NCBI RefSeq assembly: GCF_900143535.1
Contig: NZ_FRFA01000001.1
Location: 163,552 to 227,551, forward strand
Reading direction: 5' to 3'
Source: Tateyamaria sp. Alg231-49
GTDB taxonomy: Bacteria; Pseudomonadota; Alphaproteobacteria; Rhodobacterales; Rhodobacteraceae
Length of the DNA: 64,000 nt
Shown: positions 36,863 through 58,987 of the stretch, piece by piece
How the letters are laid out: each line of letters opens with the position of its first letter
Numbering within the stretch: the stretch's first letter is position 1
Program-made: the position numbers and the translations under genes
The notes under the pieces: generated by a model
What the model was told of the DNA's origin: nothing
Databases searched by the model: none
The model's input: only the letters and a program-made list of their open reading frames with translations

Positions 36863-36952
36863 GGAGACGTGGCCGAGTGGTCGAAGGCGCTCCCCTGCTA
36901 AGGGAGTAGGCGAGGAATCGTCTCGAGGGTTCGAATCCCTTCGTCTCCGCCA
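36863..36952 (+). tRNA. tRNA-Ser, anticodon GCT
   Basis: 90-nt class II tRNA. The acceptor GGAGACG (36863-36869) pairs with CGTCTCC (36942-36948), followed by G and an encoded CCA (36950-36952). The anticodon loop CTGCTAA (36895-36901) carries GCT at 36897-36899 between CTCCC and GGGAG. The long variable arm is typical of Ser, and the T-loop GTTCGAATC is intact. Its 3' end is the attachment site of the island. The gene remains complete after integration. Confidence 0.97.
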
Positions 36953-36953
36953 C
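36939..36953. other. Attachment site, tRNA-side copy
   Basis: CTTCGTCTCCGCCAC at the 3' end of tRNA-Ser is repeated exactly at 58013-58027, beside the integrase gene. The bases outside the 15 bp differ on both sides, which defines the repeated core. Confidence 0.9.
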
Positions 36954-37032: not shown

Positions 37033-37164
37033 ACTTTTGAAGCGAAGAACCCGATGATCTTAAGCAGAAGACTTTCGGCGTCGTTAACCTGGTAGATCAG
37101 GACCGTCACAAGAAATGATTAGGGGATTCGCGTTCCCCTTTGAGGCACGGCAATTTCACCAATA

Positions 37165-37211
37165 GGCTGTTAATCAATTGGTCGTAGGTTCGATCCCTAC
37201 CGCCGGAGCCA
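37165..37211 (+). pseudogene. 3' half of a tRNA-Asn(GTT) gene, attachment remnant
   Basis: From GGCTGTTAATC on, the sequence matches the anticodon loop, variable loop, T-arm (GTAGGTTCGATCCCTAC), acceptor strand CGCCGGA, G and CCA of a tRNA-Asn(GTT). The 5' half is absent: the preceding bases cannot form the acceptor or D-arm. Tyrosine integrases often carry the anticodon-loop-to-3'-end part of a tRNA as their attP, so this is most likely a relic site of another element. Confidence 0.8.
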
Positions 37212-37312: not shown

Positions 37313-38068
37313 CTAGCTGGCTTGGAATATCTCTTTTCGGTGGTGCGCCAGCCGTTCTCGGTGCTTGTCCGTTAGCAAAATTGGATTGGCCCATCGCAGC
37401 TCTTCAACTGCTGATGTACTCAGCACGGTCGAGAAGACAGGCAAACCATCATCACCAAATGTGACCAGTCCGCGATCGAAAGCGGCATCCCACAATGCGG
37501 AAAGCAGCAGGCCGTTGTGGACATCGAGACGCTCTCCGTCAGAAGTGCAGTCCTTCCACGGGATGATGTGGGAGGCTCGAAGAAGCGCGGTGTCGGAAAT
37601 GCCGGTTAGCGGACATCGACCCTGCCAGTAGTCGATGAGACCATTGCGGAAGACCTCCTGTCCAACTCGCTGGACAACAAGGCGCTCAGCTTCTGTCGTG
37701 CGAGGCAGGTCCTTGGATTTTTCCTGGAACTCGCGCAACGGCGCGTCGGGCAAACTGGCAGCGAGTTGATAGACACGCGGCAGCACGCTGTAGAGCTCTG
37801 TTAGCGATGCGAAGCTGTAGCGTGCCAGACCGGGGCCATCCAATAGTATCGGCTCGATTCCCAGCTCTGCCACTACCCCGCTGTGGTCCAAAGAGAGGAA
37901 CCAAACTCCGGTGTCATCACGGGCAAGCCAGATCGAGCCTTGCGCCGTGGTCGAACCATAGCGACGCCAACCATCTGCCTCGCCTTGTTCTCGGCGGAAC
38001 CCGTTCTGGGATGATGCTTTGTCGCATTCCTGGCGAATGATGAATGATTGGGGCGTGTCTATCATCAC
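37313..38068 (-). CDS. HNH endonuclease, last gene of the defence operon
   Basis: 251 aa. The N-terminal 120 residues have no recognised domain (possibly sensing or DNA reading). The C-terminal HNH_2-type nuclease has C152-P-L-T-G, H167 in R-A-S-H-I-I-P-W-K, D-V-H184-N185-G-L-L-L, and A-L-W-D-A-A-F-D-R-G-L. All expected catalytic residues are present. The start overlaps the methyltransferase stop by 4 bp, so it is made with it. Together they could form a restriction-modification pair in which methylation protects self DNA. Alternatively it is an abortive-infection effector. Confidence 0.88.
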   Translation of the reverse strand: MMIDTPQSFIIRQECDKASSQNGFRREQGEADGWRRYGSTTAQGSIWLARDDTGVWFLSLDHSGVVAELGIEPILLDGPGLARYSFASLTELYSVLPRVYQLAASLPDAPLREFQEKSKDLPRTTEAERLVVQRVGQEVFRNGLIDYWQGRCPLTGISDTALLRASHIIPWKDCTSDGERLDVHNGLLLSALWDAAFDRGLVTFGDDGLPVFSTVLSTSAVEELRWANPILLTDKHRERLAHHRKEIFQAS

Positions 38069-41000
38069 ATCCCCATGGCCTTGAATTCGTCGTTCGCCTC
38101 CATCCGGTCCCAGGCGGCGAGGACGAGGCGGCGGGTGCGGTATTCGCCGTGGGTGCGGATTTCCTTTTCCTTCAGGACGCGGAAGGTTTCCGAGGGGTAG
38201 TCGGGCCCTTTCACGTCGGCGGGGTCGAGGATGTAGCGCAGCTCGTCGCGGGTCAGGCCGTAGGCGCGGGCGTAGAAGGCGTCGAGATCGGCGCGCAGGT
38301 CGGCGCGGCGGTCCTCGTCCCAGGCGAAAGGCGGGCCGTCATGGCCGAGATCGCGGGCGAAGGGGGCGAGGCTGTGCGAGGTGTAGGTGAGTTCCAGCAC
38401 CTTCGGGGTGATGAAGGCGAGGCGAGGTTCAGTGTAAAAATTTGGCGGTAGTATTGGTAACTGGAAGAATACATTGAATTTTAGGTGAGTTCCGCCCACT
38501 TTTTGACGAGCAATGTAGTCCAACACGAAGCTCGCAAAGTTACCGATTAAACCTGTGATCAACGCGGTTTTTTCAGGGCGTGGAAAAATTAATAGCAGTG
38601 TATCGCCACTTCCCGCACGCGGAAATACAGAGGCGATGACTGTGCGCTCGTTAGTTGCATTTGTTATATCTCGCCATCCAAGCAGCCAATCCTTTTCCCA
38701 GTTGTTTTGAGACAATCGTCGCTTGGCTTCTTTTTCTGGTAACCAGTATCGTGCGACTGGCTCAAAAGCATGGGTGCGTTTTTGGTCGATCGAAACGTCT
38801 GTAGATGATTTTCCGCCAAGGTCATATGTAGCCCAACGATGATCAAAATGGTGGATCATCTTTGCTTCGTAAAGCGGCACATATCTAGCCGAGTTGGCCT
38901 TAGTCCAATCAACACCATCAGCAACATAGTCATCTGAAATTAATTCGTCTGCTGTTTTGAACCATTCCGAATCCTCGGACATATGCCAGATGCGCGAATG
39001 GAAATCCGCGCCCCAAAGGTTCCCCTCCGGACCAAGTGCCTGGTCAATCAGCACAGGCACTTTGGAATAAACCTTTGCTGTCAGCTCCGCATCAACGCGG
39101 GAGCGGAACACTGGAGCCGTATTGGTATTCGGATTGATGGCAGAAATCTGTTCGGCGCTAAGTGTAAAATTGCGCTCTGGTTCGGCTAGTTGCGCTGGCT
39201 CGCTCAAAAAGAAAGCAAAGTGTGCCTTCGATTCACTCTTGCCGATTGTCAGTAGAGAGAACTTGAACATCCGATGGACACTCGAAAAGAGTGGTAAACG
39301 ATTGTCGAAATCGACAAGCTGAGCCAGCCGCTGTTCTTCCACAAGATGTGCAAAAAAGGGCGCCGTTGTGGCGTCCGTGGCTATGCCAGTGGGCACGATT
39401 ATCCCCGCCCGTTTTCGAGCGAGTTTTGAAAATAACTCTGCAAAAAGGGCATAGGTGTTTACGTCACCCCGGCCAGTCAAATCAAAGCGCCCACCGTCTT
39501 CGCCGGCCATACGTGCAAATTCACTGGATGCGTCAGCTTCGCGCTTGGCAGCAAGGAACGCGCTGTACAGTGCGGATTCTGGGCAACCATCAGGCGCTTT
39601 GGCCAGTTCCTTAATCAGCCTGTCTCTTGCAGCTTTGTTCTGGGCATTGGCAATCTCGGGAGAGCGTGTCGCGAAGAACTCCTGCTCCTGAAGCTTGATG
39701 CGCTCCCAAGGCGGATTGCCGAGCACTACATCAAACCCACCGCGCTGCATGACATCAGGAAATTCCAGTGGCCAGTGGAACGCCCGAGCGCGGCGCGCTG
39801 CCTTGGGTGCGTCCACCATTGCCTGCCGCATCTTGCCCTGATTGAGGGCCATCCACAGTTCTTCGGTGGTCGGCACAGCGCGGGCCGAAGGACCGGCGGG
39901 CGCGCCGCCCACCTTGGGCAGCAGGAAGGCCGCGACATAGAGGTTCGCCGCTGCCGTCGCCCGCACAAAGCCCTGCTTCTTGCGCAGTTCCCTGAACCTT
40001 TTGGCCTTGGCCCCGATCTGCTCCACCGTATCCTCGGGCAGATCACGAAAGCCGGAGAAATCCAGCGCCATCGGCTTCATCTCGGGCATGGCGACCTGGC
40101 CTGTCCCAAAGTCGAACCCGCCTTGCCCCTTCGTCGCGTCCTGATTGGCCTTTTTGTAGTATTTGGCCGTGTCTCTGTCGTCGCCGGTCAGCGGCTTGTA
40201 GGCGGCATCGGGGATGCCATCCTCCAGCACCTTCAGGTCGAACACCCCCAGCAGCGCATCGCCGCAGCGGATCTGCGCGTCGAAAAAGCCGAGGGGAAGA
40301 CCGGGGTCCACCGTCTCGATCCAGAGCGCGACCTTGGTCAGCTCCACCGCCATCGGGTTGCGGTCCACCCCGTGCAGGCAGGAGCGCGCAACATCGCGCA
40401 GGGCATGGCGGAAGTCGGATAGCGCTGGCGTGCCCTCGGCCCGGTGGCGGGCAAGGCGCGTGGCGATGCGGCGGGCGGCGGCTAGCAGGAAGTGGCCCGA
40501 GCCGCAGGCGGGGTCGATGACTGTCAGCTTCAGCAGCTTGTCCGGTTCGGTCTTGTCGAGCACCGGGTCGAGCGCGGTGTCGAGCAGCGCCTGAACGAGG
40601 CTGTCGGGCGTGTAATAGGAGCCGGTGGTCTTGCGCTGGTTGCCCTTCTGCTCGGCCGCCTCTGAAGCGAAGACGAGCGTCTTGCCGTCGTCGCCCAGCT
40701 GGGGCTGCAGTTCGAGGAGGGATTCGTAGACCGAGCCCAGCTCCTCCGTCTCCATCGCGCGCCAGTTGACGGGGACCATGCCGGTTTTGTCTGAGAGCCA
40801 GGAGAGGCGGTAGAGCGCCTCCATGAAGGCCTTGTTGCGAAGACGGGCAGATTCAAGATGAGGTAATCGGCCTTCAGCAAAGAGACCCCCGAGCGCCGGG
40901 AGCGCCAGCGCGTCCTGGCCATTGGCAAGGGCGTTGAAGACGATCTTTACACCTTCATATCGGTCGTGGTGCTTATCCCAGGTCACGGCGCGGTAGCATT

Positions 41001-41958
41001 GCTTGCGCAGGGCCGCGAGTGAGTAACCTTGGGCGTAGAGGGCGCGGGCGTCGTTCTTTGCCTTGGTTGGGTGTAGAAGGTTTCGGTCCTCCGCCACCAT
41101 GAGGAAAATCAGGCGATAGACGAGCCGCAGGAGTTCGTTGAACCATTGGGTGAGGTTCACTTCGCCGGATTTCAGCTTGGTGGCGAGGTCGGGGTTGGCT
41201 TCGAGAAATCCGGAACCAAGCACTTTGAGCGCGATCTGGACCTGCTCGGCAAGGCGATCCCGGGCAACTTCGCCCTCTTTCGAGCCCGTGTCTCTCCAGC
41301 GCTCAAGAGCGCAATCTGTGGCCGGTGAACCCTCTGTCCCGAAACGGGACCTGTGGATCAGCAACCAGAGGACGGCGAACGATGCGATGTCCTCGTTCGA
41401 GAAGATTTGCGCGAGGTCCGCCTCAATATAGGCCGGGCGGGTCAGCGAGGCGTTGTCCCGCATGAGGCGAAGATGGGTGCCGTTGGTGACAATGCCCCAC
41501 AATGCCTCTTCCTTGTCGTTGAGGTAGTCTTGAAGGGCGAAAGCCGGGGAGCGTGCGCGGTCGACCGACAACGTCGGGCTTCGGCGGTCTATAGCTTCGG
41601 ACGGGGGTACGACCACGATTGGAACGCGGCTACTTGCGGTAAATGCGAGCGGTGCATCTGCTGTCTCGAGATCATCGAAGCTGAATGTTTCTTTGAAGAA
41701 GCCAGCTACAAATCTGCGAGTTGCATCTTGTGATGGAGCCTCGAGTTTGGCGAAGGCGTCGAAATGCGATTGTCCAACACGGAATGCTGTCGAAACTTCT
41801 TCTCGGATCGATAGGCCTTTTCGGACGGAGTAGTCCTCGGGGGATTGCTCAGGCGCGTCTCGCTGATCCACCTTGGCTATCATCGCTGGCGCGATCAAGT
41901 TGCCTTCGAGGTTCAGCGACGGCCATGCCGACATGTCGGTAGTTGGTTTTCGGGCCAT
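38065..41958 (-). CDS. Eco57I-type adenine-N6 DNA methyltransferase (DrmMI-like)
   Basis: 1297 aa. After a 470-residue N-terminal part come SAM motif I D-P-A-C-G-S-G-H-F near residue 484 and the catalytic G-N-P-P-W-E-R motif IV near 747. These are marks of gamma-class N6-adenine methyltransferases of the Eco57I/type IIL and DISARM DrmMI sort. I see no P-D-(D/E)xK motif, so it is probably methylase only. The stretch after NPPW (about residues 755-1172, DNA 38440-39690) is visibly poorer in GC than both flanks. That is where the target-recognition region should be, which suggests domain exchange. It starts 2 bp after the SNF2 helicase stop. Confidence 0.88.
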   Translation of the reverse strand: MARKPTTDMSAWPSLNLEGNLIAPAMIAKVDQRDAPEQSPEDYSVRKGLSIREEVSTAFRVGQSHFDAFAKLEAPSQDATRRFVAGFFKETFSFDDLETADAPLAFTASSRVPIVVVPPSEAIDRRSPTLSVDRARSPAFALQDYLNDKEEALWGIVTNGTHLRLMRDNASLTRPAYIEADLAQIFSNEDIASFAVLWLLIHRSRFGTEGSPATDCALERWRDTGSKEGEVARDRLAEQVQIALKVLGSGFLEANPDLATKLKSGEVNLTQWFNELLRLVYRLIFLMVAEDRNLLHPTKAKNDARALYAQGYSLAALRKQCYRAVTWDKHHDRYEGVKIVFNALANGQDALALPALGGLFAEGRLPHLESARLRNKAFMEALYRLSWLSDKTGMVPVNWRAMETEELGSVYESLLELQPQLGDDGKTLVFASEAAEQKGNQRKTTGSYYTPDSLVQALLDTALDPVLDKTEPDKLLKLTVIDPACGSGHFLLAAARRIATRLARHRAEGTPALSDFRHALRDVARSCLHGVDRNPMAVELTKVALWIETVDPGLPLGFFDAQIRCGDALLGVFDLKVLEDGIPDAAYKPLTGDDRDTAKYYKKANQDATKGQGGFDFGTGQVAMPEMKPMALDFSGFRDLPEDTVEQIGAKAKRFRELRKKQGFVRATAAANLYVAAFLLPKVGGAPAGPSARAVPTTEELWMALNQGKMRQAMVDAPKAARRARAFHWPLEFPDVMQRGGFDVVLGNPPWERIKLQEQEFFATRSPEIANAQNKAARDRLIKELAKAPDGCPESALYSAFLAAKREADASSEFARMAGEDGGRFDLTGRGDVNTYALFAELFSKLARKRAGIIVPTGIATDATTAPFFAHLVEEQRLAQLVDFDNRLPLFSSVHRMFKFSLLTIGKSESKAHFAFFLSEPAQLAEPERNFTLSAEQISAINPNTNTAPVFRSRVDAELTAKVYSKVPVLIDQALGPEGNLWGADFHSRIWHMSEDSEWFKTADELISDDYVADGVDWTKANSARYVPLYEAKMIHHFDHRWATYDLGGKSSTDVSIDQKRTHAFEPVARYWLPEKEAKRRLSQNNWEKDWLLGWRDITNATNERTVIASVFPRAGSGDTLLLIFPRPEKTALITGLIGNFASFVLDYIARQKVGGTHLKFNVFFQLPILPPNFYTEPRLAFITPKVLELTYTSHSLAPFARDLGHDGPPFAWDEDRRADLRADLDAFYARAYGLTRDELRYILDPADVKGPDYPSETFRVLKEKEIRTHGEYRTRRLVLAAWDRMEANDEFKAMGM

Positions 41959-41960
41959 GA

Positions 41961-44726
41961 TTAAACCTCGCCCGCCATCAATACGAACAAACCAATGACG
42001 TCAGGCGGATGAACAGCTTCTACGCTCACGCGCGAAACTGAACCGGCAGCCGCACGCAAACGTGCATGGTCTTCCACAAGCTCCGCCGCGCGTTCAGTCA
42101 CGAACGAAGCCAGACGTCCGGTGAGAAGCTCCGGCAAATCTGCCTGCGCGTTCTTGATGACCCGTTCCCTTGCTATCGGTGCCAGATCGGCCGTCGCAGG
42201 TGTGTTCATCATTTCCCGCGCTTCATCAGAAACTGCCACAATGGTGTCACCGCGAATGGCTACCAGCGCAGCTTCTTCGGCGAGCAAAAGCCGTTCCTTG
42301 CGGGAGTGGATCGTAAGCTTATAGCGGTTGCGCAGAAGGACCACGCGGGTCATCGCGGTAACCGCACTGGTCGGCCAAGCCCCAACTCGTCCGATACCGA
42401 GGTCGGGAAGAGCCTCTGCGTCCAAGGAGGCTTCCACAAGGCTCTCCGCAAGTGAGGCTGTTAGAGGGTGCGTCCTTGTCAGCAAAGATGTACCTGAGGG
42501 CGCAGGTTCCGCCGTGGCAAGTTTCACCGACTTCTCGAGACCGCGCTGTTCAAGTTTTTCCTTTAGACTTTCCTGAAGGGCGTGAACGTGAGCGACGTAA
42601 ACAGTGCGCTTCTTTTCAAGTGGCACACCGAAGCGCGACATTGCTCGCTCAACGAACAAGCGAGTGTCCTCCGGGGAGCCAAGCAAGCTCTTGACCTTGT
42701 TCCATTCAGGCGCGACCTCCGCTGGTTTCATCGCGTTTTGAGCAAAACGAGCCCGAGATTTCTTTTCGTTTTCACTGGCATCGCGCCAGCGCGCCTCCAT
42801 GACTTGCGTGCCGTCATCCAAACGCAGATCGAGCGTCATTTGTTTGTGTCCGCCGCGACGGAGCATCATCGCGGCCATCAGCGCATCCGTGACCGGCCCA
42901 CGCTCGTCTGGCAGAGGAACTGTGACGCCAGTGGCCTTTCTGATCTCTTCAGCCTTGCGCAGGATGACGTCGAGTACAGCGCCATCGATCGCGCTATCGG
43001 GTGAGAACATCATTATGGAACGAACCAGTTCTGCAGGCTGACCAAATCGGTCCACGCGACCTTCACGTTGCTGATGCCGTGTTGGATTCCATGACAGGTC
43101 ATAGTGCACGACCGTGTCGAAGAGCTGCTGAAGGTTGATCCCTTCTGATAGGCAGTCTGTCGCGACCAAAATACGCTGAACGGCTTTTTCGCTGTCCTCC
43201 AGAGCCATTTCTGAGACGCGATCCCTACGTTCGTCCGGTGTCAATTCACCAGTAACTGACTCGATAATCAGCTTTGGAAAGGCCTTACGCAGCCCATTCT
43301 TCACGTGCTCGGCTGTTGCTAGATATCGGCAAAAAACCACTGGGTTCGCGCCGCTCTTGATCACTGGTTTAAGCGCTCCGACAAGCGCATCGAGTTTTGG
43401 GTCCTTTGCCGTCAGAAGGTCAGACGCCTGATCCAACAGGGCTTGCAAAGCTGGATCATCCGCGAATGTCGTGTTTGGCTCTACGTCAACGGCATCCTCG
43501 TCGTCACCATCTTCGTCGTAGATTTGTGGCTCGAGGCGTTCTGCTTCATTGGACGCGCGATTTCGGAGCGCGCTATGTGCCGCCGCTGGGGAAGACCCTA
43601 CACAGCGCATCAAGGCTAGGGTCCCCCAAAATGCCAGCCGCTGATCCTTCTTCTGTTCGCCTGCCTTTGAGACGACAGATAGGCAGTAGTCCAAAACAGT
43701 TTCTTGGAATGCCAAGTGTTCAGCGGATAGACGGTAGGAGAACTCGGTCGTTTCGTGCTTTGGGAAAGATCGGTCTTCGTGCCAATCACCCTCAATCAAA
43801 TCTACCCGCCGACGTTGCACATAGTGCCGAGCAAGACGCTCCCGATATCGCGCACTTTCGAAGTCCATCGAAGCGAACTCTTGGTCGATCAATGATAACA
43901 AACGCCCGAAAGCAACTTCATCACCAGAGTGCGGCGTGGCCGTAAGCATAATAACCCGTCGTTCGGGGTCTCGCGCGAGTCCTTGAAGTAATCCAAAGCG
44001 TTGCTGTTTGCCTTTGTGCGTTCCAACACAGGAATGCGCTTCGTCGACAATAATGAAATCAGGACAAGCCCGCGCAAAACTTTCCCTGCGCTTTTCTGCT
44101 TTGATGTAGTCGAGGCTGACAACGGTGAACGGATAGGAATCAAATAACGTTTGAGCCGTTGGCAAATTGCGTTCGAGGCGAGCTGCTGTGCCTGAAGTTA
44201 CCGGAACGGCATCTATTCCGAAGCGGTCCTTCAGTTCAATAATCCACTGATCAACGAGGTGCGGTGGGCAAAGAACCGAGAAAGCATCGACCTCACCTCG
44301 ATCCATTAATTCACGCAAGATCAAGCCTGCTTCGATTGTTTTGCCAATCCCGACATCATCAGCGATTAGAAGACGAGGCACCTGAAGCCGAAGGGCCATA
44401 AGGAGAGGAACTAACTGGTAAGTTCTCGGCTCAAAGGCAAGTTGAGCTGCGGATCGAAACGGACCCGCACCACGTCGCAGGGTCAGTCGGAGCGCATCAA
44501 CAAGGAGTGCGGCCTTGGCCTGCACCGTGGGCTTTGCGTCGTCCGGGAGGTCAAACCTAGCCGCTTCAACAGTGGATAGCTCCAGCGACGGGTCAAGGAT
44601 GACGACATCGCTTTCATTGCCAGAAAGGGGGCGAAGGGCGAGTACGTCGGGGCGTGGCGCAGGAAGAGAAACCCATTCCCGGCCACGGGCGCGGACAAGA
44701 TCTCCAGGACTAAAGTTCAGTGTCAT
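41961..44726 (-). CDS. SNF2/HepA-type helicase-like ATPase (DrmD-like)
   Basis: 921-aa superfamily-2 protein. Walker A D-D-V-G-I-G-K-T lies near residue 125, the Walker B box D-E-A-H near 229, T-A-T-P-H-S near 265, and motif VI Q-Q-R-E-G-R-V-D-R-F-G-Q near 556. This is the SNF2/RapA pattern of DNA translocases without strand separation. About 300 C-terminal residues are helical with no named domain. DrmD of class 1 DISARM is of this type and also sits beside an adenine methyltransferase. It begins 4 bp after the large helicase gene. Confidence 0.9.
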   Translation of the reverse strand: MTLNFSPGDLVRARGREWVSLPAPRPDVLALRPLSGNESDVVILDPSLELSTVEAARFDLPDDAKPTVQAKAALLVDALRLTLRRGAGPFRSAAQLAFEPRTYQLVPLLMALRLQVPRLLIADDVGIGKTIEAGLILRELMDRGEVDAFSVLCPPHLVDQWIIELKDRFGIDAVPVTSGTAARLERNLPTAQTLFDSYPFTVVSLDYIKAEKRRESFARACPDFIIVDEAHSCVGTHKGKQQRFGLLQGLARDPERRVIMLTATPHSGDEVAFGRLLSLIDQEFASMDFESARYRERLARHYVQRRRVDLIEGDWHEDRSFPKHETTEFSYRLSAEHLAFQETVLDYCLSVVSKAGEQKKDQRLAFWGTLALMRCVGSSPAAAHSALRNRASNEAERLEPQIYDEDGDDEDAVDVEPNTTFADDPALQALLDQASDLLTAKDPKLDALVGALKPVIKSGANPVVFCRYLATAEHVKNGLRKAFPKLIIESVTGELTPDERRDRVSEMALEDSEKAVQRILVATDCLSEGINLQQLFDTVVHYDLSWNPTRHQQREGRVDRFGQPAELVRSIMMFSPDSAIDGAVLDVILRKAEEIRKATGVTVPLPDERGPVTDALMAAMMLRRGGHKQMTLDLRLDDGTQVMEARWRDASENEKKSRARFAQNAMKPAEVAPEWNKVKSLLGSPEDTRLFVERAMSRFGVPLEKKRTVYVAHVHALQESLKEKLEQRGLEKSVKLATAEPAPSGTSLLTRTHPLTASLAESLVEASLDAEALPDLGIGRVGAWPTSAVTAMTRVVLLRNRYKLTIHSRKERLLLAEEAALVAIRGDTIVAVSDEAREMMNTPATADLAPIARERVIKNAQADLPELLTGRLASFVTERAAELVEDHARLRAAAGSVSRVSVEAVHPPDVIGLFVLMAGEV

Positions 44727-44730
44727 GCCC

Positions 44731-47700
44731 TTACCCTTTCAACAACTTAATGAGTTGCTCTGGAATTCCGGTCTGAGGCGTCTCAGGTAAGGCGACCAAC
44801 TCCCAACCTTTTTCCGAAGCAGCCGCCACCATTTCGGACGATATCGATGTGACAGTCGCAGCCACTAAATGACCTCGCCAAGCGAACTCTAAATCTACGC
44901 CCGCAAACTTTGCAGGCATCGTATCGACTGCCGGCAATCCAGCATCTTCAAAAGCCTTGACCCAAGGAGAAGCATCTTGGTCCGCCGCAACGCGGGCTTC
45001 AAGGACAGTCCTCCCTCGAGCGAGATCAATAAGTAACTGGGCAACCTCGGGGCTCCCTCGATCTATCTGCTCATGATCGGGCTGATTGAAGTAGGAGAGC
45101 AGACATCGATAGCAACCGCGCACGCACGCCTCGCCTTCTTTCTCCGTCAGAAGGTCAGCATCGCCAGCCTCAATAGCCGTTTCGATGTTCTCGAAGTGCA
45201 TCAATTCGAGCGCGGTGCGCGCGACCTTTCCAATGGATTCAGCATCATCAACCAGGCGCGTTAGAACACCTGCGCCCCCCTCTGTTGCTTCATAGGCGAG
45301 AATAGCGCGTCGATTGTCCCGCGCCGGAAGCGGTTCACCAAGAATCTCGCCCTCTTCGAGCTGAAACTCCACTGCTATGCCCCGCAAAAGGGCATGCTGA
45401 ACAGTTGTTATCGTTTCGGGCTCGAAGTCTTCCGGCTTCTGAAAGCGCATCAGAAGCGCGTTCTTTCTATCTCTAACAATAGGCACGATCTTAACCGGCC
45501 GCACCACGTCAGGTGCCTTTTCGGTTTCAGAATTTTCATCTTCTGATTTCGCCCAATAACCGGTCCTTGGGTCGATATTGAAACCAAAGACGGTCTGGTC
45601 CTTCCGGCGCTTTAGACCCTTGTTGAGACGGCTGATCTCGGCGCTGTTGGCGTATTGAAGGGACAGCAATGAGGTTTCACAACATTTGAACTCAGCATTG
45701 GTCACTTGAAGTTGACCGTCCTTGCTGGGCCAAGCGAACACTGTTTGGATATCGAACCCTTGGCGGACGCGTTCTTCGTCGTTTGCTGTGATACGTTCCG
45801 TGGGTGCCGCCTCTACATTGTCGATCCGGAGCGTACGCTTGATGGGCACTTCTCCTGCCATGTGGGTGTCACAACCATGGCAACGTTCGACTTCGTCCTC
45901 GTGACAGGCACCACAGTTCGGGCAGATGTAGATGTCCGTTGTGGCGAGTTCTGATCCATCACCCTCACGCACTTCTGGTGGCAACTTTGCCTTCAGCACT
46001 CGGTAAGCACGACCTTCGTGGTAGATAAGGCTCCGAGGGCCGAATTCTGAAATGGCCAGAAAGCGCGCTCGAGACAGAAACGAGCCGCTTTTGCCTTCTC
46101 CAGGGATAAAGGCATAAAGTGGTAGGCGCGGGAAGTTGTATCCAGGCAAGAAGCCTTCGGTAGCAAGATACCGGTAAGTGTAGAAATCGGATCCATTCGA
46201 AGCTTTACCCTGCTCGAGGATCGCAATCTGATCACTGGCTTGCATTTGCGCAGCTTTAATTTTCCGACGATCCGCACCGGAAAGGCCTGTGATTTCCGAA
46301 CGCGCGTTTGCCTCGGCCAGTTGGGTGCGCGCCGAGTTGTAGAGTTCACGCCAACGATCAAAGGCCGTGTCGAACTCTTTTGGTGCATTCATGGCAACGT
46401 GCAGCACAAACTCTTCTGCATCGTCCATCCATATCGGCGTTGCCCCACCATCTGCTGCCAAGATTTGATCTAGGACGCGTTTCATCGGGGTGCGAGCGCG
46501 TGCGACCAATTCCGACTTCGAAATCACGGCAAGAGTTTCTTCTTTAATCGGATATCCGTCCCCTTGGAGATCAAGGACCTCCGGGATGTCAGCGGAAAGA
46601 GCTAGTTTGGTTTCTGCCAGCCAAATAGCGTGCAGGTGAGAACGCACCAATTCCTCGTTGGTAATGTCGAGGGCTGGCGGGCGAACGACACCTGCAACCA
46701 TCTCGTTACGGCGCTCAAAGAAATACTGATCATGTGGAGAACCAGAGGTGCAATAGGTAACCACCACGGCGGCCTGCCCCGAGCGCCCAGCACGACCAGC
46801 ACGCTGTGCGTAATTGGCCGGCGTTGGAGGAACGTTGCGCAAATAGACGGCATTGAGTGCGGAAATATCGACACCGAGTTCCATTGTCGGAGAGCAGAAC
46901 AATGCAGGCAGGAATTGATCAGACTCACCTGTTGTTTTTATTTCGGTTCTGTAATCCGATGTCGCGAGGTTGGCTTGGTCATCATCTTCAAACCGGAAGC
47001 GCCATTCCCGCCACTCGCGTTGTTTCTGTGATACCTGCGCGGTGTGCTCACGACCTTCCAATCCCCAATATGCACTTTGACCTGTCGCAAGATCATCGGC
47101 GATCGAAGCGTAGAGATCATGAAAATAGCGATTGCCTCGTTTGGTTTCATCCAAGTGTGCAGCCCCAGGTACAAGGCGCACTGCCGAAGGCGTCAGACGC
47201 CAACCAATAAGGTCTGCATCAAGGTCGACGGGAACGACTAAGCCTTCGTCCGCGAATAGCTCAAGCAGCCTTGAAAAGAATTCAAGGTAGTCGTCTTTCT
47301 TAAGCTTGATGCCGATTACGCTTTTTCTGTTGATCAGTCGCGCGATCCGAGAATTGTGCCCAGCTCGCAAGAGGGTTTGTTCTTCACGAAGGCCGACAAT
47401 ACCCTTTCCAGGAGCCCGTAAAAGTAGCGATGAGCGCCCCTTAGGGTTTTCTTTGGCGTCGATTGCCCAAGGTGATCGCAACAATGATCTCGACTTCAGC
47501 GCGACCCCATCGAGAACCGTTAGGTCCAAAGCTTCAGTATTGACTGCGAGGCCCTCCAGCATCGCTCCAAGAACAGTCTTTAGAAAAGCAGCGCGTTCTT
47601 CTTCCTCCAAATCCCCTAGCTCGGGAAGGACAACCATCATCCTCTCGCGATCTGCTGCGATCTCGCTTACGCCAACAAATTCTACGTCCAAAAGATTCAA

Positions 47701-49932
47701 AACAGACAGGCTCGGATTTGTATATCGCCAACCGCGGCGAAGATCGGTCCAGACACGATGAGCGAGAACTTTTGCTAACGCTCGTTGAGCATCCTCGCGA
47801 ATGACTGCACCCGCCGAAGGATCTAGCATCCAATGAGCGCGCGCGTCTTTGTTTGTGGATGTGAACCCAAGCGCTTTGACGACTCGCAGACCAAACTCGT
47901 CTTCGGTCAGGCCATCTTCTCCTGCGGCATTGACAGCGCGCAGGATCGCTCCGCGTAGGAGGCTAACAAAAAGGAAGTCGTTGAAGTGTCCGGACTGGAG
48001 GGCTGCATCTTGCCGGTTGTCTGTAAATCCAAGCAGCTTACGCTTTGTTTCTGGAACGCCACTTTCCGGCCCATTCATCCATTCTAGCGCACTCGAAACA
48101 AGAAGAGTTGTTGCGGAACTGCGTCCTTCGCCAGAGAGGCCCGCCAGCTTGCTACGTTCCCGCATCCCTTGGTTCGGCTCATCTTGGCAGCAAAGGCAGA
48201 AAGCGAATTTTCCAGGAATAAACCAGAATTCCCGCCCCCCGGCACCGTGCCGTCCATCGGACGTAACTGTGTATGATACCGGCATCCGCTTTTTTCGGTA
48301 CGATCTAAGACGCTCGATCCCGTTGCGCTCTTCCAGCCAACTCTCCGGATAGCTTTCTAGCTCACCGTTGAAGACGAACTCTTGGTTGTTCTCCGGAATG
48401 GGGCAAAGGTAACCGGCAACATCTTCATCTTCTTCGTCCTGGAGGGGCGTGTCGTCAATGTTACGTGGTCGAAACCGAATGTTTCCGTCGTCATCTGCTT
48501 TCGAAACGACGTGATATTCGTGACCACAGCTTCTACAGAACCGGGTTGGGTAAAGGCGATTACCCGGCGCATCCGGGTCTTCAAGTTGGCCCTCAAATAG
48601 CACCGTTCGCGGGTGTTCTGCCAAGGTGGTGAAGACGTCACCCGCGCCAGAAATAAACCTGTGCAGTTTGAACGCGAGAAACGAAACGTCACCAGTGCCG
48701 CCCCGTTTGTCTTCAGGCAGACTGACTCGAGTCAAAAATGTTTCCAATGCTAAACGGCATTGCTCTTCCTGGACCCCGCTATCTTCGGCAAGTTTGGCAA
48801 CTGCGTCTTCAAAGGGAATGGGCTTTTTCCGCTTCAACTCCAAGCCGTCATCGAGGCCAAGGGCAAGCTCTGCCCAAACAGCTAATGGATGCTGCCGCAG
48901 TATCTCGTCGTCCAAGTCGTCCGGCAGTGGCAGCGTCAGCACCTCTTTGAGGCGGGCTCTGGCCTGTTCAAGATCGATTCTATCGTCCGTAGCACGCTGC
49001 AGGGATTCATTTATTACAGCATCTGGCCCAATCTCCGAGCCAAACAAGCGAGTGGCGACTGTCGCCACTGCTAACGCTCTGTTTTCGTCCGAGCCTTCTG
49101 AGGCCATCGTCGCCGACGTGCCGATGCAGATTGGAGCTTTGTCCGGTGCGCAACGGTCTCGCAATCGCCTAACAAGCACAGCGACATCTGCACCTTGCCG
49201 ACCTCGATAGGTGTGCAACTCGTCAAGAACAATGAATTCAAGGCCGCTGGCATTTGCAATGACACGGGAATCCAGATCGTTTTGTCGGGTCAGCAGAAGT
49301 TCGGCCATCATGTAGTTGGTCAGAAGTATGTCGGGCGGATTTGCCGCTATCTTTTGGCGTTCCTCCTCACTCTCCTGGCCCGTATAGCGCTTGACGACAG
49401 GTTTTAGGTTTTCAGGAAGACCGGATTGGCTGATGAACTTGTCAATTTCCTTCAACTGACTGTTTGCCAAGGCGTTCATTGGATAGACGATAATTGCACG
49501 GGTCTTGCGGGGCTTGCCCGCACTCAGGGCCCGAATAATTGCATCGACAATTGGGACGAAAAAACACAGGGATTTCCCGGATCCGGTCCCAGTCGTTACA
49601 ACATAGCTCTGTCCGGATTTTGCTTTGGCAATCGATTCTGCCTGGTGGCGGTGAAAGCGGAGTGGAGTTTCGCCGAACCGAAAAACCTTCCCGCATGCCT
49701 CATCAAGATCACCAGACGCGACAAGCTCATCCACAGTTGGTCCGGACAGGTAGCGCGGGTTCAGAGAGAGCAATGCATCGGGCCAGAACCGACCTTCGTC
49801 GTATTCAGCGTCGATAGTCGTGCGAAGGTCTTCAGAACGAATGCTACTGAATGATCGAGAGAACCGTTCGTAGGAATCGATTAGGTGATGGTCAAATTCA
49901 AATGCCTGCATTTTGTCCCCGCAACGGCCCAC
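44731..49932 (-). CDS. Large DEAD/DEAH-box helicase with C-terminal DUF1998 (DruE/DrmA-DrmB-like)
   Basis: 1733 aa, the first gene of the operon. Walker A T-G-T-G-S-G-K-S lies near residue 116, D-E-L-H near 237, G-T-S-A-T-M near 275, and motif VI Q-R-A-G-R-A-G-R-S-G-Q near 1048. A Cys cluster C-P-N-C-G-A-C-H...C-H-G-C-D lies near 1339. The DUF1998 signature C-V-R-G-C-Y-R-C-L-L-S-Y near 1607 is followed by a short C-terminal domain. The architecture is that of MrfA/Hrq1-type helicases, Druantia DruE, and DISARM DrmA plus DrmB in one chain. An internal ATG (M8, 49911) is an alternative start. Confidence 0.9.
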   Translation of the reverse strand: MGRCGDKMQAFEFDHHLIDSYERFSRSFSSIRSEDLRTTIDAEYDEGRFWPDALLSLNPRYLSGPTVDELVASGDLDEACGKVFRFGETPLRFHRHQAESIAKAKSGQSYVVTTGTGSGKSLCFFVPIVDAIIRALSAGKPRKTRAIIVYPMNALANSQLKEIDKFISQSGLPENLKPVVKRYTGQESEEERQKIAANPPDILLTNYMMAELLLTRQNDLDSRVIANASGLEFIVLDELHTYRGRQGADVAVLVRRLRDRCAPDKAPICIGTSATMASEGSDENRALAVATVATRLFGSEIGPDAVINESLQRATDDRIDLEQARARLKEVLTLPLPDDLDDEILRQHPLAVWAELALGLDDGLELKRKKPIPFEDAVAKLAEDSGVQEEQCRLALETFLTRVSLPEDKRGGTGDVSFLAFKLHRFISGAGDVFTTLAEHPRTVLFEGQLEDPDAPGNRLYPTRFCRSCGHEYHVVSKADDDGNIRFRPRNIDDTPLQDEEDEDVAGYLCPIPENNQEFVFNGELESYPESWLEERNGIERLRSYRKKRMPVSYTVTSDGRHGAGGREFWFIPGKFAFCLCCQDEPNQGMRERSKLAGLSGEGRSSATTLLVSSALEWMNGPESGVPETKRKLLGFTDNRQDAALQSGHFNDFLFVSLLRGAILRAVNAAGEDGLTEDEFGLRVVKALGFTSTNKDARAHWMLDPSAGAVIREDAQRALAKVLAHRVWTDLRRGWRYTNPSLSVLNLLDVEFVGVSEIAADRERMMVVLPELGDLEEEERAAFLKTVLGAMLEGLAVNTEALDLTVLDGVALKSRSLLRSPWAIDAKENPKGRSSLLLRAPGKGIVGLREEQTLLRAGHNSRIARLINRKSVIGIKLKKDDYLEFFSRLLELFADEGLVVPVDLDADLIGWRLTPSAVRLVPGAAHLDETKRGNRYFHDLYASIADDLATGQSAYWGLEGREHTAQVSQKQREWREWRFRFEDDDQANLATSDYRTEIKTTGESDQFLPALFCSPTMELGVDISALNAVYLRNVPPTPANYAQRAGRAGRSGQAAVVVTYCTSGSPHDQYFFERRNEMVAGVVRPPALDITNEELVRSHLHAIWLAETKLALSADIPEVLDLQGDGYPIKEETLAVISKSELVARARTPMKRVLDQILAADGGATPIWMDDAEEFVLHVAMNAPKEFDTAFDRWRELYNSARTQLAEANARSEITGLSGADRRKIKAAQMQASDQIAILEQGKASNGSDFYTYRYLATEGFLPGYNFPRLPLYAFIPGEGKSGSFLSRARFLAISEFGPRSLIYHEGRAYRVLKAKLPPEVREGDGSELATTDIYICPNCGACHEDEVERCHGCDTHMAGEVPIKRTLRIDNVEAAPTERITANDEERVRQGFDIQTVFAWPSKDGQLQVTNAEFKCCETSLLSLQYANSAEISRLNKGLKRRKDQTVFGFNIDPRTGYWAKSEDENSETEKAPDVVRPVKIVPIVRDRKNALLMRFQKPEDFEPETITTVQHALLRGIAVEFQLEEGEILGEPLPARDNRRAILAYEATEGGAGVLTRLVDDAESIGKVARTALELMHFENIETAIEAGDADLLTEKEGEACVRGCYRCLLSYFNQPDHEQIDRGSPEVAQLLIDLARGRTVLEARVAADQDASPWVKAFEDAGLPAVDTMPAKFAGVDLEFAWRGHLVAATVTSISSEMVAAASEKGWELVALPETPQTGIPEQLIKLLKG

Positions 49933-53668: not shown

Positions 53669-54784
53669 ATGATTGGCGACTTTGGTGACCGAAATCCAAG
53701 GAATAGAGACGTTAAAGTTGCTGACTATGCGCCTGAAAAATGGAAAGAGTTCTCCTTCGCCAGAGAAGAAGTAGCAACGAGAGCTATCAAAAATGCTGGC
53801 GGAAAAGTCGAGACCTACAGAGTGCTCATTCAAGTTGATCTCAACGGAATGTATATGCGCTTGCATAAGTGGCTTACTGAGGCCGGTATGCCTATCAGGG
53901 ATGGGCTCATTCTAAGTCGCTTCGCCTTTTTTCAAATTTATGATGCCTTTGAAAGAATTAAAAAGAGTATCGTAGAACTTTCAGGCGGAGAGTTCGCAGA
54001 CTTTGAAGGCGTCACAGAGGACATCCGAACGACGGATAACGAAGGCATTTGGATCGATCCAAATAAGACCTATTTGAAATTTTCTCCGCAATTTGATCTT
54101 TTTTATGCTCCGTCACCTCACAAAGATATCGAGTGGAAGCTGCGTAAAGAGGCTCGATCCGGTAATTTTAACCTGCAAAGGCTTGTTAAGAATGCGGGTA
54201 AAGGGGTCATTGAAGTTTATGGAAACGAACGCGATTACAATGCCTATGATGATTTCATTGCAAAGTTAAAAGCGAATCCAGAATACTCTCAATCGGAGCA
54301 AGGGTTCTTTTGTTACTATGTAGGGCCAAAAGGTCTTAGCAGCTTTAGCGAAAAAGAAGTTGACACGCGTATTGTGATACGCGCTATGGATGCTCTTTAT
54401 AATTACGAAGCTGACGTTATTTGTGTGGTTTCTTCTGACCAAGATTTCTTGCCGCTGAGCAAGAAGGCTTCTGAATTTGGGGTATCTTTTTACCAGGCCG
54501 ACTTAGCCAAGTTTAATTTGCAGCACAATGTTGGTCGGAAAATCAAAGAGTTGGGATCGAAGTTTCTGAAGGGCCGGATTGATCCAAGCTGGCCACTTAA
54601 GGTAATTCTTGAGGCTTCGAACTCCGAAGAGCATAAATCGTCCGCACTCTACGAGATAGATGACGACGAGCTTAGAACTCTTTGCCAGATGCACAATGAA
54701 TTCAATGACTACCATATCTCGCCAAATTTTAGTTCGGATGGAACAGTCTCGGGCTTGATTCTATCAAAACCACTAAATTTGTGA
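53669..54784 (+). CDS. NYN-domain protein (LabA/PIN-like ribonuclease candidate)
   Basis: 371 aa, no signal or membrane segment. The NYN fold appears as V-L-I-Q-V-D57-L-N-G near the front, then D232-T-R-I-V-I-R-A-M-D241, and I-C-V-V-S-S-D258-Q-D260-F-L-P-L-S. Together these supply the acidic metal site of PIN/NYN nucleases. The last 80 residues are an additional domain of unknown type. AT-rich relative to the backbone. It stands alone on the plus strand among minus-strand island genes. A role in defence or RNA control is inferred from the domain and location. Confidence 0.75.
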   Translation: MIGDFGDRNPRNRDVKVADYAPEKWKEFSFAREEVATRAIKNAGGKVETYRVLIQVDLNGMYMRLHKWLTEAGMPIRDGLILSRFAFFQIYDAFERIKKSIVELSGGEFADFEGVTEDIRTTDNEGIWIDPNKTYLKFSPQFDLFYAPSPHKDIEWKLRKEARSGNFNLQRLVKNAGKGVIEVYGNERDYNAYDDFIAKLKANPEYSQSEQGFFCYYVGPKGLSSFSEKEVDTRIVIRAMDALYNYEADVICVVSSDQDFLPLSKKASEFGVSFYQADLAKFNLQHNVGRKIKELGSKFLKGRIDPSWPLKVILEASNSEEHKSSALYEIDDDELRTLCQMHNEFNDYHISPNFSSDGTVSGLILSKPLNL

Positions 54785-56684: not shown

Positions 56685-57848
56685 TTATACTGCTGATGTC
56701 GCAAAATCGGCCCACTTGGACATGAGCACACGTCGCTTCTCGAACAGGTCGCCGCGTCGATAAGCGGCTTCCACGCGATTTGGGATTGAGTGGGCGAGAG
56801 CCATTTCCGCAACCGCGTGGGGCGTTTCAGTAGTTTCTGATACCCAATCTCGAAATGTCGACCTGAAACCGTGTGGAACCGCTGGGATGTTGAGGCGCTT
56901 TAGAACAGCTGCCAGTGTCATATCGCTTAGAGGGCGTCCTAGACGAGCGCTCGGAAATACCAACTCTTCGTCTTGGAACCTTTGTAGTGCTTTCAGGTGC
57001 GCGATCGCAGGATCTGAGAGAGGAACCCGATGCTCCAGATTTGCTTTCATTCGATCCGGGGGGATAGTCCATACATGAGATTTGAGGTCGAACTCCATCC
57101 AACGAGCCTTCCGGACTTCCCCCGAACGTGTCGCAGTCAAGATCGCGAACATCAAAGCCTGAGCGCCCATACCTTCCGCATCCGCGATCTGCCCAAAAAC
57201 TGATGGCAATTCCAAGAAAGGAAGCGCCTTAAAGTGCTTTTGACGATCTTTTTGCCTCGGAAGAGCTCGTTCGACCCCCTCCACGGGGTTTATGCCTTCG
57301 CAATATCCTGAGACACGCGCCCACTCGAAAACAGCTTTTAGCCTCTGGCGCACACGACGGGCAGTTTCAGGTGTCTCCAGCCAAATTGGTCTAAGCACCG
57401 AAAGGATATCCGCTTGGCTGATGTCGAAAATATCGCGGGAGCCGATCTTCGGAAACGCCGCGGTTTCAAGCGTTCGGATCCACTGAGCGGCATGCTTGGA
57501 ATTGCGGACATGCCCGTCGATCTGATCTTGCCAGACATGTCTCGCGGCTTGTTCAAAAGTCATCTTTGAGCGCTTCTTTTTGTCTCGCACCGCTGCTGGA
57601 TCACCGCCGCTTCTCGCGATCTCGCGCCATTCGGATGCAATAGCCCTTGCATCTGAAAGGGACACAAGAAGCGCTGACCCAATACCGAGTTCGCGGCGTT
57701 TTCCATGTACGGTCCCTCGCCATTGCCACCAGCGCGAGCCGTGCTCGCTGACGACGAGATAGAGGCCCATCCCGTCGGCGTACCGGCCAGGTTTTTTTTC
57801 ATTCTTGACCCTAAGTGCGGTAAGTTGATTGCGGACTTCGCGTGGCAC
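56685..57848 (-). CDS. Tyrosine integrase of the island (P4 type, DUF4102 N-terminus)
   Basis: 387 aa. The N-terminal DUF4102 arm-binding domain covers residues about 10-90 (A-D-G-M-G-L-Y-L-V-V, W-R-G-T-V-H-G-K-R-R-E-L-G-I-G). It is followed by a core-binding SAM-like domain and the catalytic domain with Arg241, H326-x-x-R329, His353 and Tyr363. All catalytic residues are present, so it may be active. It is oriented away from the nearby core site at 58013, with arm-type repeats at 57874 between, the usual arrangement. It should recombine at the 3' end of tRNA-Ser(GCT). Confidence 0.93.
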   Translation of the reverse strand: MPREVRNQLTALRVKNEKKPGRYADGMGLYLVVSEHGSRWWQWRGTVHGKRRELGIGSALLVSLSDARAIASEWREIARSGGDPAAVRDKKKRSKMTFEQAARHVWQDQIDGHVRNSKHAAQWIRTLETAAFPKIGSRDIFDISQADILSVLRPIWLETPETARRVRQRLKAVFEWARVSGYCEGINPVEGVERALPRQKDRQKHFKALPFLELPSVFGQIADAEGMGAQALMFAILTATRSGEVRKARWMEFDLKSHVWTIPPDRMKANLEHRVPLSDPAIAHLKALQRFQDEELVFPSARLGRPLSDMTLAAVLKRLNIPAVPHGFRSTFRDWVSETTETPHAVAEMALAHSIPNRVEAAYRRGDLFEKRRVLMSKWADFATSAV

Positions 57849-57896: not shown

Positions 57897-58012
57897 GGTT
57901 GGAAACCAGCAATATCAATTGAGTGCAATTGAAATCTGATTCTAACCTAAAGTTTTGATAATAATGAAATTATCAAAATAACTGGGAGTATATGAAACGC
58001 CAAAATGGCGGA

Positions 58013-58027
58013 CTTCGTCTCCGCCAC
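58013..58027. other. Attachment site, distal copy
   Basis: Exact 15-bp copy of the tRNA-Ser 3' end (CTTCGTCTCCGCCAC) 165 bp from the integrase start. It marks the right end of the island. Confidence 0.9.
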
Positions 58028-58076
58028 CCACACTCATTGCCTTTATTTCTATATAAATATAGGGTTCCGACCATAC

Positions 58077-58099
58077 ATTGGAACATATATTGGAACATA
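58077..58099 (+). repeat. Direct repeat before the second integrase
   Basis: ATTGGAACATA occurs at 58077-58087 and 58089-58099, 12 bp apart, just before the start of the truncated integrase. The spacing of about one helical turn suits arm-type or operator sites. Confidence 0.5.
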
Positions 58100-58103
58100 C
58101 GGC

Positions 58104-58985
58104 ATGGTCGAGCTACCTCACACCAGTTTGGTTCTGATTAAAAAGAAGTGGTACGTGAATTGTACGATACCCAAAGACTTGCGCCCTCTGTTCAAAGACA
58201 GGAAGCAGATCAGACGGTCCACTGGCACAGCCGATAAGTCCCGTGCGGAGCGACTGAAGCATTCCATTTCATCTGAGATTTACGAGGAACTGGCCAAGGC
58301 TAAACCTGACAGGACCAACGCCATCTTTGAAAGTCTTTGTAAGCTAGGTGTCGTACCTGAGGATATCGAAGGGTTCACCTCTCCAGACGAATTGACTGAA
58401 GACGATCTCAAGACGATGGAAATATTGGCAGAGGCCCCAAGGCATCCTGAACCTGCTTTGCCTGAAGAGATGGCTATGGAAGCCAGTGGCATTGAGAGAG
58501 GCCGTGTAGCGGCCCATGAGGCCATCCAAGAACTGCGTAGGCTCGTGACGCCTAAACCGTCCCACAGTGGCTCAGTGGTCCTCTCTGTCACTCAGAGAGA
58601 GTACTTGGACAGCAAGCCATACGGGCCAGCCAAGACGATCAGGGATGCTGAATTATCGATTGGTGAATTCCAAGCATTTGCAGGAGACATTCCGCTGTCT
58701 GATGTCACGGCTGTCATGATCCATAGCTACGCTGAAAAGCTTGGGGGGACCAAAAGCAGGGAGACCATCGCCAAGAAGATTGGATACGTTAAGAGAATGT
58801 ACGATTGGGCGGTCAGGAAAGGTTACGTTGAAGCCAATGTCTTTATGACAATCACCCTAGATAAGAAACTTGGGACAGCACGGGCCAGCTATCAGCCATT
58901 CAGCCACGATGAATTGACTAAGATATTCGGACTTGAAATGCCTGAACACCTGAAGACACTACTGTCAATTCTTGTCACTACAGGT
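58104..58985 (+). pseudogene. Second tyrosine integrase, truncated before the catalytic domain
   Basis: From ATG 58104 the protein has a DUF6538-like start (L-I-K-K-K-W-Y-V-N-C-T-I-P-K-D-L-R) and a linker. The core-binding domain follows (residues about 185-270, with R-M-Y-D-W-A-V-R-K-G-Y). It stops at L-L-S-I-L-V-T-T-G, just before the first catalytic Arg box. The remaining 28 codons of the open frame are antisense to an IS3 orfB fragment. It directly follows the right attachment site of the island, as if a second element had used the same tRNA-Ser target. Confidence 0.8.
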
Positions 58986-58987
58986 AC

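What the first reader, a model, noticed from the sequence alone, without database searches (positions are those of the whole stretch)
37313..49932. Four-gene helicase-helicase-methyltransferase-HNH operon, probably a DISARM/Hma-related defence system of unusual composition
Four genes are packed with gaps of 4 bp, 2 bp and a 4-bp overlap: a 1733-aa DEAD/DUF1998 helicase, a 921-aa SNF2 helicase, a 1297-aa Eco57I-type methyltransferase and a 251-aa HNH nuclease. Class 1 DISARM has a SNF2 helicase (DrmD), an adenine methyltransferase (DrmMI), DrmA, DrmB and the PLD protein DrmC. Here DrmA/DrmB-like functions appear fused in one chain resembling DruE, no PLD protein is seen, and an HNH nuclease with intact C/H/H/N residues is translationally coupled to the methylase. 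The HNH gene could be the missing effector. The helicase-methylase grouping called Hma is another possible home. Calling it a new subtype is inference.
Basis: partly seen in the sequence, partly recalled or inferred. Interest (0 to 1): 0.8.

Follow-up and report, generated by a model that had tools for sequence, protein, structure and literature searches.

The report
ARMADA defence operon with replacement nuclease
This is a four-gene bacterial operon of the recently named ARMADA Type I anti-phage kind in which the usual DNA-cutting domain fused to a helicase has decayed while a separate HNH nuclease gene is kept beside it, suggesting that the system swapped its cutting part.

Summary
The operon is real and as drawn. 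It is neither DISARM nor Hma: its gene order (YprA-like helicase, RapA/BrxHII-like helicase, PglX-like methylase) is that of ARMADA Type I, named in 2025 (PMC12458937). The HNH gene is not in the text I read. It is conserved: 64 of 80 close loci carry it; of the other 16, 15 reach the contig end within 1.6 kb and one has a broken methylase. The paper says ARMADA YprA chains end in a predicted active Vsr nuclease; here that domain is a fold remnant without its catalytic loop. Of 106 loci scorable for both: this HNH present/Vsr dead 80 (at least 4 duplicates), absent/intact 22, absent/dead 4, both 0. One to three evolutionary events fit, as a single lineage is not rejected (AU p 0.515). Between methylase and HNH lies a variable slot: SMC-like gene in 41 of 80, nothing in 16 (the window), other genes in 23; in 40 of 40 measurable SMC loci the methylase gains a ~190-residue tail, in 0 of 39 others. 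Most likely HNH took over cutting (inferred). The operon lies in a probable 21 kb tRNA-Ser element.

The parts
44731..49932 (-). YprA-like helicase (ArmC-like), 1733 aa: DEAD core, Helicase_C, MZB zinc domain; best defence profiles DruE
   Evidence: Walker motifs
44734..45051 (-). C-terminal remnant of a Vsr-type nuclease domain (last 106 codons of the helicase gene, of which about the last 83 align with Vsr folds); catalytic D/DGxxH loop missing
41961..44726 (-). RapA/BrxHII-like SNF2 helicase (ArmA-like), 921 aa
   Evidence: (PADLOC PDLC02853, named DpdE, 656 bits over residues 1-917)
38065..41958 (-). PglX/DrmMI-like adenine methyltransferase (ArmB-like), 1297 aa, NPPW and DPACGSG intact, without the long tail seen in SMC loci
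37313..38068 (-). HNH endonuclease, 251 aa: own N-terminal domain (about 1-105), linker helices, HNH_2 domain (about 120-250) closest to VcaM4I
38063..38068 (-). GTGATG junction: methylase stop overlapping the HNH start (4 bp with the GTG, 1 bp with the ATG)
   Evidence: coordinates and first residues
36863..36952 (+). tRNA-Ser(GCT), probable insertion site of the element
36939..36953 (+). 15-bp direct repeat in the tRNA-Ser 3' end (probable attachment site)
58013..58027 (+). second copy of the 15-bp direct repeat (probable far attachment site)
56685..57848 (-). tyrosine integrase of the probable element
   Evidence: Pfam Phage_int_M, Arm-DNA-bind_3, Phage_integrase
37164..37211 (+). tRNA 3' half, tRNA-Asn(GTT)-like by eye, between tRNA-Ser and the HNH stop; also present beside an HNH remnant on another contig
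   Evidence: ARAGORN calls no gene there

Best explanation
The operon is a divergent ARMADA Type I anti-phage system that changed its nuclease. The helicases and the methylase act as in other YprA-based systems: the methylase marks host DNA, and the YprA-like and RapA-like motors engage unmarked invading DNA. In the ancestor the cut was made by the Vsr nuclease at the end of the YprA chain. In this lineage that domain lost its catalytic loop and remains as a structural or docking domain, while a separate HNH endonuclease, encoded after the methylase (and any cargo gene) and here translationally coupled to it, makes the cut. Shown: gene content and order, intact motor, methylase and HNH motifs, loss of the Vsr catalytic residues with retention of the fold, and near-invariant presence of the HNH gene in this lineage. 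Inferred: anti-phage activity, self/non-self discrimination by methylation, and that HNH does the work that Vsr did.
For: Gene order and three core families match ARMADA Type I. This HNH present with Vsr dead 80, absent with Vsr intact 22, absent with Vsr dead 4, both 0, among the 106 of 139 loci scorable for both (L166 moved to HNH-present; L089 counted by hand because its HNH lies across the plasmid origin). HNH is kept down to about 44% SNF2 identity (32 HNH-bearing tree rows). The Vsr remnant is homologous to the intact domains and lacks the DGxxH loop, and its model matches Vsr folds. Of three full-length HNH genes found without an ARMADA core, L171 sits beside SNF2 and SMC fragments and L152 beside an SMC cargo gene, so they look like decayed loci. 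One HNH-less locus with a dead Vsr (L095) has other nuclease genes downstream, EVE-AAA plus DUF2357-PDDEXK_7.
Against: The association rests on few independent events. HNH-bearing rows fall in three places on the SNF2 tree and two on the YprA tree, but one lineage is not rejected (AU p 0.515; the 20 rows held together included L038, L139, L155 and L166, added by hand), and the independent-pairs test has no power (4 pairs: 1 same way, 0 opposite, 3 no difference; L166 was still scored HNH-absent). 'Absent' means no match over 25 bits in a stretch reaching at least 3 kb past the methylase; L166's HNH lay beyond its stretch, so some absences may be false. The profile sees only this HNH family: Planktothrix L090, with an intact Vsr, has a short annotated HNH gene before its SNF2 gene. 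L143 has an intact Vsr and also McrBC-like genes, so nuclease modules can be added without Vsr loss. Streptomyces L094 has a degenerate Vsr and no HNH; of three downstream ORFs scanned two had no Pfam match and one is Hsp70-like. L038 and L139 have neither (broken methylase; IS21 insertion). L153 has a full-length HNH and no ARMADA match within 14 kb. No activity was measured.
Confidence: 0.62

Rival explanations
1. HNH is an extra, partly independent restriction enzyme of the modification-dependent type (like VcaM4I) added to the ARMADA core: it cuts phage DNA that carries modified bases, covering phages that evade the methylase-based arm. Loss of Vsr is then unrelated.
Against: Pfam finds no EVE or other sensor domain in the HNH protein. 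It would not explain why this HNH and an intact Vsr were not seen together (0 of 106), although relatedness could.
Confidence: 0.2
2. HNH is a hitch-hiker: a mobile-element or homing-type gene near the element's attachment site that was fixed in one lineage, with no role in defence; Vsr decayed in the same lineage by chance.
For: In the window the HNH gene ends near a tRNA fragment and the attachment repeat; HNH genes without an ARMADA core exist; a single origin is not rejected.
Against: 21 invariant columns, including C152, H167, N185 and H243, across 43 HNH proteins down to 30% identity to the window's. HNH stays co-oriented after the methylase while the cargo beside it changes. In only 4 of 45 ARMADA loci scanned does a whole tRNA gene lie within 500 bp past HNH (L014, L026, L027, L081, which cannot see tRNA fragments).
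Confidence: 0.13
3. A canonical DISARM, Hma or Druantia system.
For: DrmMI, DrmD, HmaA and DruE profiles all score.
Against: No separate DrmB and no PLD gene among the four genes or the ten neighbouring ORFs scanned; HmaA scores 163 bits against 656 for the best profile; the gene order is that of ARMADA Type I.
Confidence: 0.03

Closest known systems
ARMADA Type I (Bell et al. 2025, PMC12458937)
   Same: YprA-like helicase with the DUF1998-type region in one chain, then a BrxHII/RapA-like helicase, then a PglX-like methylase, in that order
   Different: Fused Vsr nuclease inactivated; an HNH gene follows; variable cargo slot between methylase and HNH in relatives. HNH occurs in the paper's text only in a reference title; its supplements and figures were not seen
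ARMADA Type II (same paper; shown there to defend E. coli)
   Same: The same three core families; all four genes of that cluster were needed for protection (section read)
   Different: Different gene order and a GajB-like helicase with a RelE domain as fourth gene instead of HNH
DISARM class 1
   Same: Homologous SNF2 helicase and methylase
   Different: DrmA and DrmB are separate genes and the nuclease is the PLD protein DrmC
VcaM4I (EVE-HNH modification-dependent endonuclease)
   Different: No EVE domain found by Pfam; a different N-terminal domain; encoded in a multi-gene operon
Nocardioides pNOCA01 and Chlorohelix ARMADA-like loci (L143, L095)
   Same: The same three-gene core followed by another nuclease module
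   Different: McrBC-like or EVE-AAA plus PDDEXK_7 genes instead of HNH; L143 keeps an intact Vsr, L095 does not

Membership tests
ARMADA Type I | YprA-like helicase with DUF1998/MZB region in one chain | tested here: met
   DEAD, Helicase_C and MZB in one 1733-aa protein; DruE profiles best
ARMADA Type I | BrxHII/RapA-like helicase gene | tested here: met
   BrxHII-type profile 166 bits and DrmD 255 bits; RapA model 131 bits, below NCBI's cut-off of 576
ARMADA Type I | PglX-like methylase gene | tested here: met
   DrmMI 244 bits, PglX 59 bits; Eco57I and N6_Mtase above Pfam cut-offs
ARMADA Type I | Order YprA, BrxHII-like, PglX-like | tested here: met
   against the text
ARMADA Type I | YprA protein inside the ARMADA I clade of the published tree | not tested
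   The paper's representative WP_108720193.1 and its tree were not in hand; my trees use only loci found here
ARMADA Type I | C-terminal Vsr nuclease predicted active (stated for ARMADA Type I and II; not what the class was named on) | tested here: not met
   Catalytic motif absent; fold remnant present. For this reason it is filed as a variant lineage, not a plain member
ARMADA Type I | Anti-phage activity | not testable with these tools
   needs plating assays
DISARM class 1 | Separate DrmA and DrmB genes | tested here: not met
   helicase and MZB region lie in one chain
DISARM class 1 | PLD nuclease DrmC | tested here: not met
   no PLD domain in the four genes or in ten neighbouring ORFs; other ORFs of the window were not scanned
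Hma | HmaA/B/C gene set | tested here: inconclusive
   HmaA profile 163 bits, far below the best profile; no other Hma profile among the rows shown, which were cut at 25 for three of the four proteins
Druantia | DruE together with the other Druantia genes | tested here: inconclusive
   DruE-like helicase only among the four genes; neighbouring ORFs were not scanned with PADLOC
Modification-dependent EVE/SRA-HNH endonucleases | HNH domain fused to a PUA-family sensor | tested here: inconclusive
   HNH domain met; no sensor domain by Pfam; N-terminal fold matches weak and mixed

The most novel reading that the evidence does not exclude
ARMADA Type I of this lineage is a modular chassis: a constant recognition core (two motors plus methylase) whose cutting module was exchanged (fused Vsr for HNH in trans) and which carries a dedicated slot between methylase and HNH into which second effectors are plugged (SMC/LmuB-like ATPase, M78 peptidase-like, CBS, HD and unassigned proteins). 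The ~190-residue methylase tail, present in 40 of 40 measurable SMC loci and in 0 of 39 others, would be a docking domain that couples the plugged-in ATPase to the shared sensor. The window operon would be the minimal, empty-slot form.
Probability: 0.35. Interest if true: 0.78.

Novelty: new variant of a known kind. Interest (0 to 1): 0.6.

Why it matters
ARMADA is newly named, and the experiments in the sections that I read concern Type II. A lineage in which the fused nuclease has died while a separate nuclease gene is kept with few exceptions suggests where the cut is made and gives a clean experimental handle: a 251-aa protein that can be deleted or mutated. The variable slot, with a methylase tail that appears only with the SMC-like cargo, suggests how defence systems swap effectors while keeping one recognition core, a question otherwise hard to test.

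Tried and rejected
DISARM, Hma and Druantia as homes: rejected or judged unlikely on gene content and profile scores. ARMADA I in annotated phage records: no match at E 1e-60. Viral contigs gave 27 loci with A1; L097-L099 were kept as ARMADA-I-like by score, and the other 24 (L100-L123, weaker matches) were left out of every count without closer study. Treating the HNH/Vsr table as independent evidence was rejected: Fisher p 5e-19 ignores relatedness, and the tree-based tests have no power or do not reject one origin.

Left out before the tables: L083 and L084 (second fetches), L100-L123, and L152, L153, L171 (no ARMADA core); L151 was skipped by the script (no SNF2 in it). 33 of 139 loci could not be scored for both traits. 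The trees use 71, 56 and 42 rows, thinned from 133 usable SNF2 rows, with L166 still labelled HNH-absent.
Full report
WHAT IS THERE. Four minus-strand genes at 37313-49932 are confirmed with the stated lengths and spacings. By Pfam they are a DEAD/Helicase_C/MZB helicase, an SNF2-type helicase, an Eco57I/N6 adenine methylase and an HNH_2 protein. Walker, DEAD/DEAH, NPPW, SAM-binding and HNH residues are present. PADLOC's best profiles are DruE (270 bits), a profile named DpdE (656 bits over nearly the whole SNF2 protein), DrmMI (244 bits) and a generic HNH profile (95 bits). The NCBIfam models that match score below their cut-offs, so no named NCBI family fits.

WHAT IT IS CALLED. PMC12458937 (Bell et al. 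2025, preprint; I read sections 5-8, 12, 14, the figure legends and term passages) names ARMADA: operons with a YprA-like helicase, a BrxHII/RapA-like helicase and a PglX-like methylase, Type I generally in just this order. [quoted passage not shown] HNH occurs in its text once, in a reference title; figures and supplements were not seen. Searches of the paper library for ARMADA with Druantia and HNH, for ARMADA/YprA, and for DISARM with HNH and DUF1998 listed no paper that from its listing describes such an operon; in PMC13192584 (passages only) HNH refers to the Zorya protein ZorE.

THE HNH GENE IS CONSERVED. A scan of genome contigs with the SNF2 protein gave 209 relatives, of which the best 80 were kept. 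64 of these 80 have an HNH gene downstream of the methylase on the same strand, 59-71% identical to the window's except for one piece cut by a contig end (L052, 45%). Of the 16 without it, 15 reach the contig end within 1.6 kb of the methylase (or SNF2) frame, and one (L038) has 6.9 kb without HNH and a truncated methylase. More distant plasmid loci from Agrobacterium, Sphingobium, Acinetobacter, Acidithiobacillus, Mesorhizobium, Croceicoccus and Hydrogenimonas also have it. Loci from Planktothrix, Deinococcus, Thermus, Rhodococcus and Nostoc have no match to it; Planktothrix L090 has a short gene annotated as HNH upstream of SNF2 that the profile does not match. Whether HNH is the last gene of the transcript elsewhere was not tested.

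HOW MANY EVENTS. On the SNF2 tree HNH-bearing rows fall in three places (a mostly alphaproteobacterial clade of 30 rows, a clade of six with Acinetobacter and Acidithiobacillus, and Hydrogenimonas), with Vsr-intact rows between. On the YprA-core tree the first two form one clade (SH-aLRT 99) and Hydrogenimonas stands apart. Holding all together is not rejected (AU p 0.515). So one to three swaps fit the data, and the table must not be read as 80 independent observations. Exceptions with neither nuclease: L038 (broken methylase), L139 (IS21 after the methylase), L094 (Streptomyces; three downstream ORFs scanned, no nuclease match) and L095 (other nuclease genes downstream). L143 has an intact Vsr and McrBC-like genes besides. 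Full-length HNH without an ARMADA core: L152 keeps an SMC cargo gene, L171 keeps SNF2 and SMC fragments, L153 shows neither. In a sample of 385 genomes of the window's class, 11 match the HNH profile at E 1e-30 or better, 4 of them over full length; 3 of these 4 are in ARMADA loci and the fourth is L171.

A CARGO SLOT. Of 80 HNH-bearing loci with both genes in the stretch, the space between methylase and HNH holds an SMC/LmuB-like gene in 41, nothing in 16 and other genes in 23: M78 peptidase-like in 7 (one of them also CBS), CBS alone in 2, HD in 2, a UDG-like protein below Pfam's cut-off in 2 (two records of one genome), and 10 unassigned. The SMC label rests on PADLOC LmuB (75 bits) and on annotation in two plasmids. 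Methylases of SMC loci carry a tail of 161-207 residues beyond the conserved region (40 of 40 measurable); the others have 1-43 (39 of 39). These loci are related too, but the separation is complete and includes distant loci (L085, L128, L140). The window is the empty-slot form.

CONTEXT. The operon lies in a probable 21 kb integrative element: a 15-bp repeat in the 3' end of tRNA-Ser(GCT) recurs at 58013-58027 beside a tyrosine integrase, with FRG- and NYN-domain genes between. A tRNA 3' half lies near the HNH stop; the same fragment with the last 44 codons of an HNH gene is found on another contig of this genome. Residence of ARMADA on tRNA-inserted elements is described for Type II in the paper (legend).

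MECHANISM. Most likely the methylase protects host DNA, the two motors engage unmodified invading DNA, and HNH replaces the lost Vsr activity as cutter (inferred; the replacement step about 0.6). The main rival is an added modification-dependent nuclease (0.2). In ARMADA Type II, deletion of any of four genes abolished protection and most methylase or Walker mutations abolished it, two weakened it (section read), which supports treating co-operonic genes as working parts, by analogy only.

VERDICT. A real, well-conserved variant of a recently named system; novelty lies in the nuclease change and the cargo slot, not in the core.

Noticed in passing
window 36939-58027: Probable 21 kb integrative element: tRNA-Ser(GCT), 15-bp direct repeat, tyrosine integrase 56685-57848(-), FRG-domain gene 54954-56312(-), NYN-domain gene 53669-54784(+). 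The empty site was not shown.
   Followed up: partly
window 37164-37211; L002 1345-1632: A tRNA 3' half (tRNA-Asn-like by eye) near the HNH stop; another contig of the same genome has the same fragment plus the last 44 codons of an HNH gene (89% identical), near tRNA-Gly: perhaps a scar of another such element.
   Followed up: partly
80 HNH-bearing loci, between methylase and HNH: Variable cargo slot: SMC/LmuB-like in 41 of 80, empty in 16, other genes in 23.
   Followed up: partly
L027, L085, L140 and 37 other loci with SMC cargo: Methylase has a ~190-residue C-terminal tail only when the SMC-like gene is the neighbour (40 of 40 measurable against 0 of 39).
   Followed up: partly
L143 (Nocardioides pNOCA01): DISARM drmA/drmB lie about 4 kb upstream of an ARMADA-like operon with an intact Vsr domain that is followed by an AAA/Mrr_N protein and McrC.
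   Followed up: no
L095 (Chlorohelix plasmid): ARMADA-like operon with degenerate Vsr, no HNH, and an EVE-AAA protein plus DUF2357-PDDEXK_7 nuclease downstream: perhaps a second kind of nuclease replacement.
   Followed up: partly
L090 11512-11805 (Planktothrix plasmid): A short gene annotated as HNH endonuclease just upstream of the SNF2 gene, in a locus with an intact Vsr; not matched by the HNH profile used here.
   Followed up: no
L088 14818-15452 (Acidithiobacillus caldus plasmid): A Phd/VapC toxin-antitoxin pair sits between the SNF2 and methylase genes.
   Followed up: no
L152, L153, L171: Full-length HNH without an ARMADA core; two of the three keep SMC or SNF2 remnants, L153 has a TIR-domain neighbour.
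   Followed up: partly
window 58005-59069: A second integrase-like ORF (DUF6538, SAM-like domains) starts at the far repeat.
   Followed up: no
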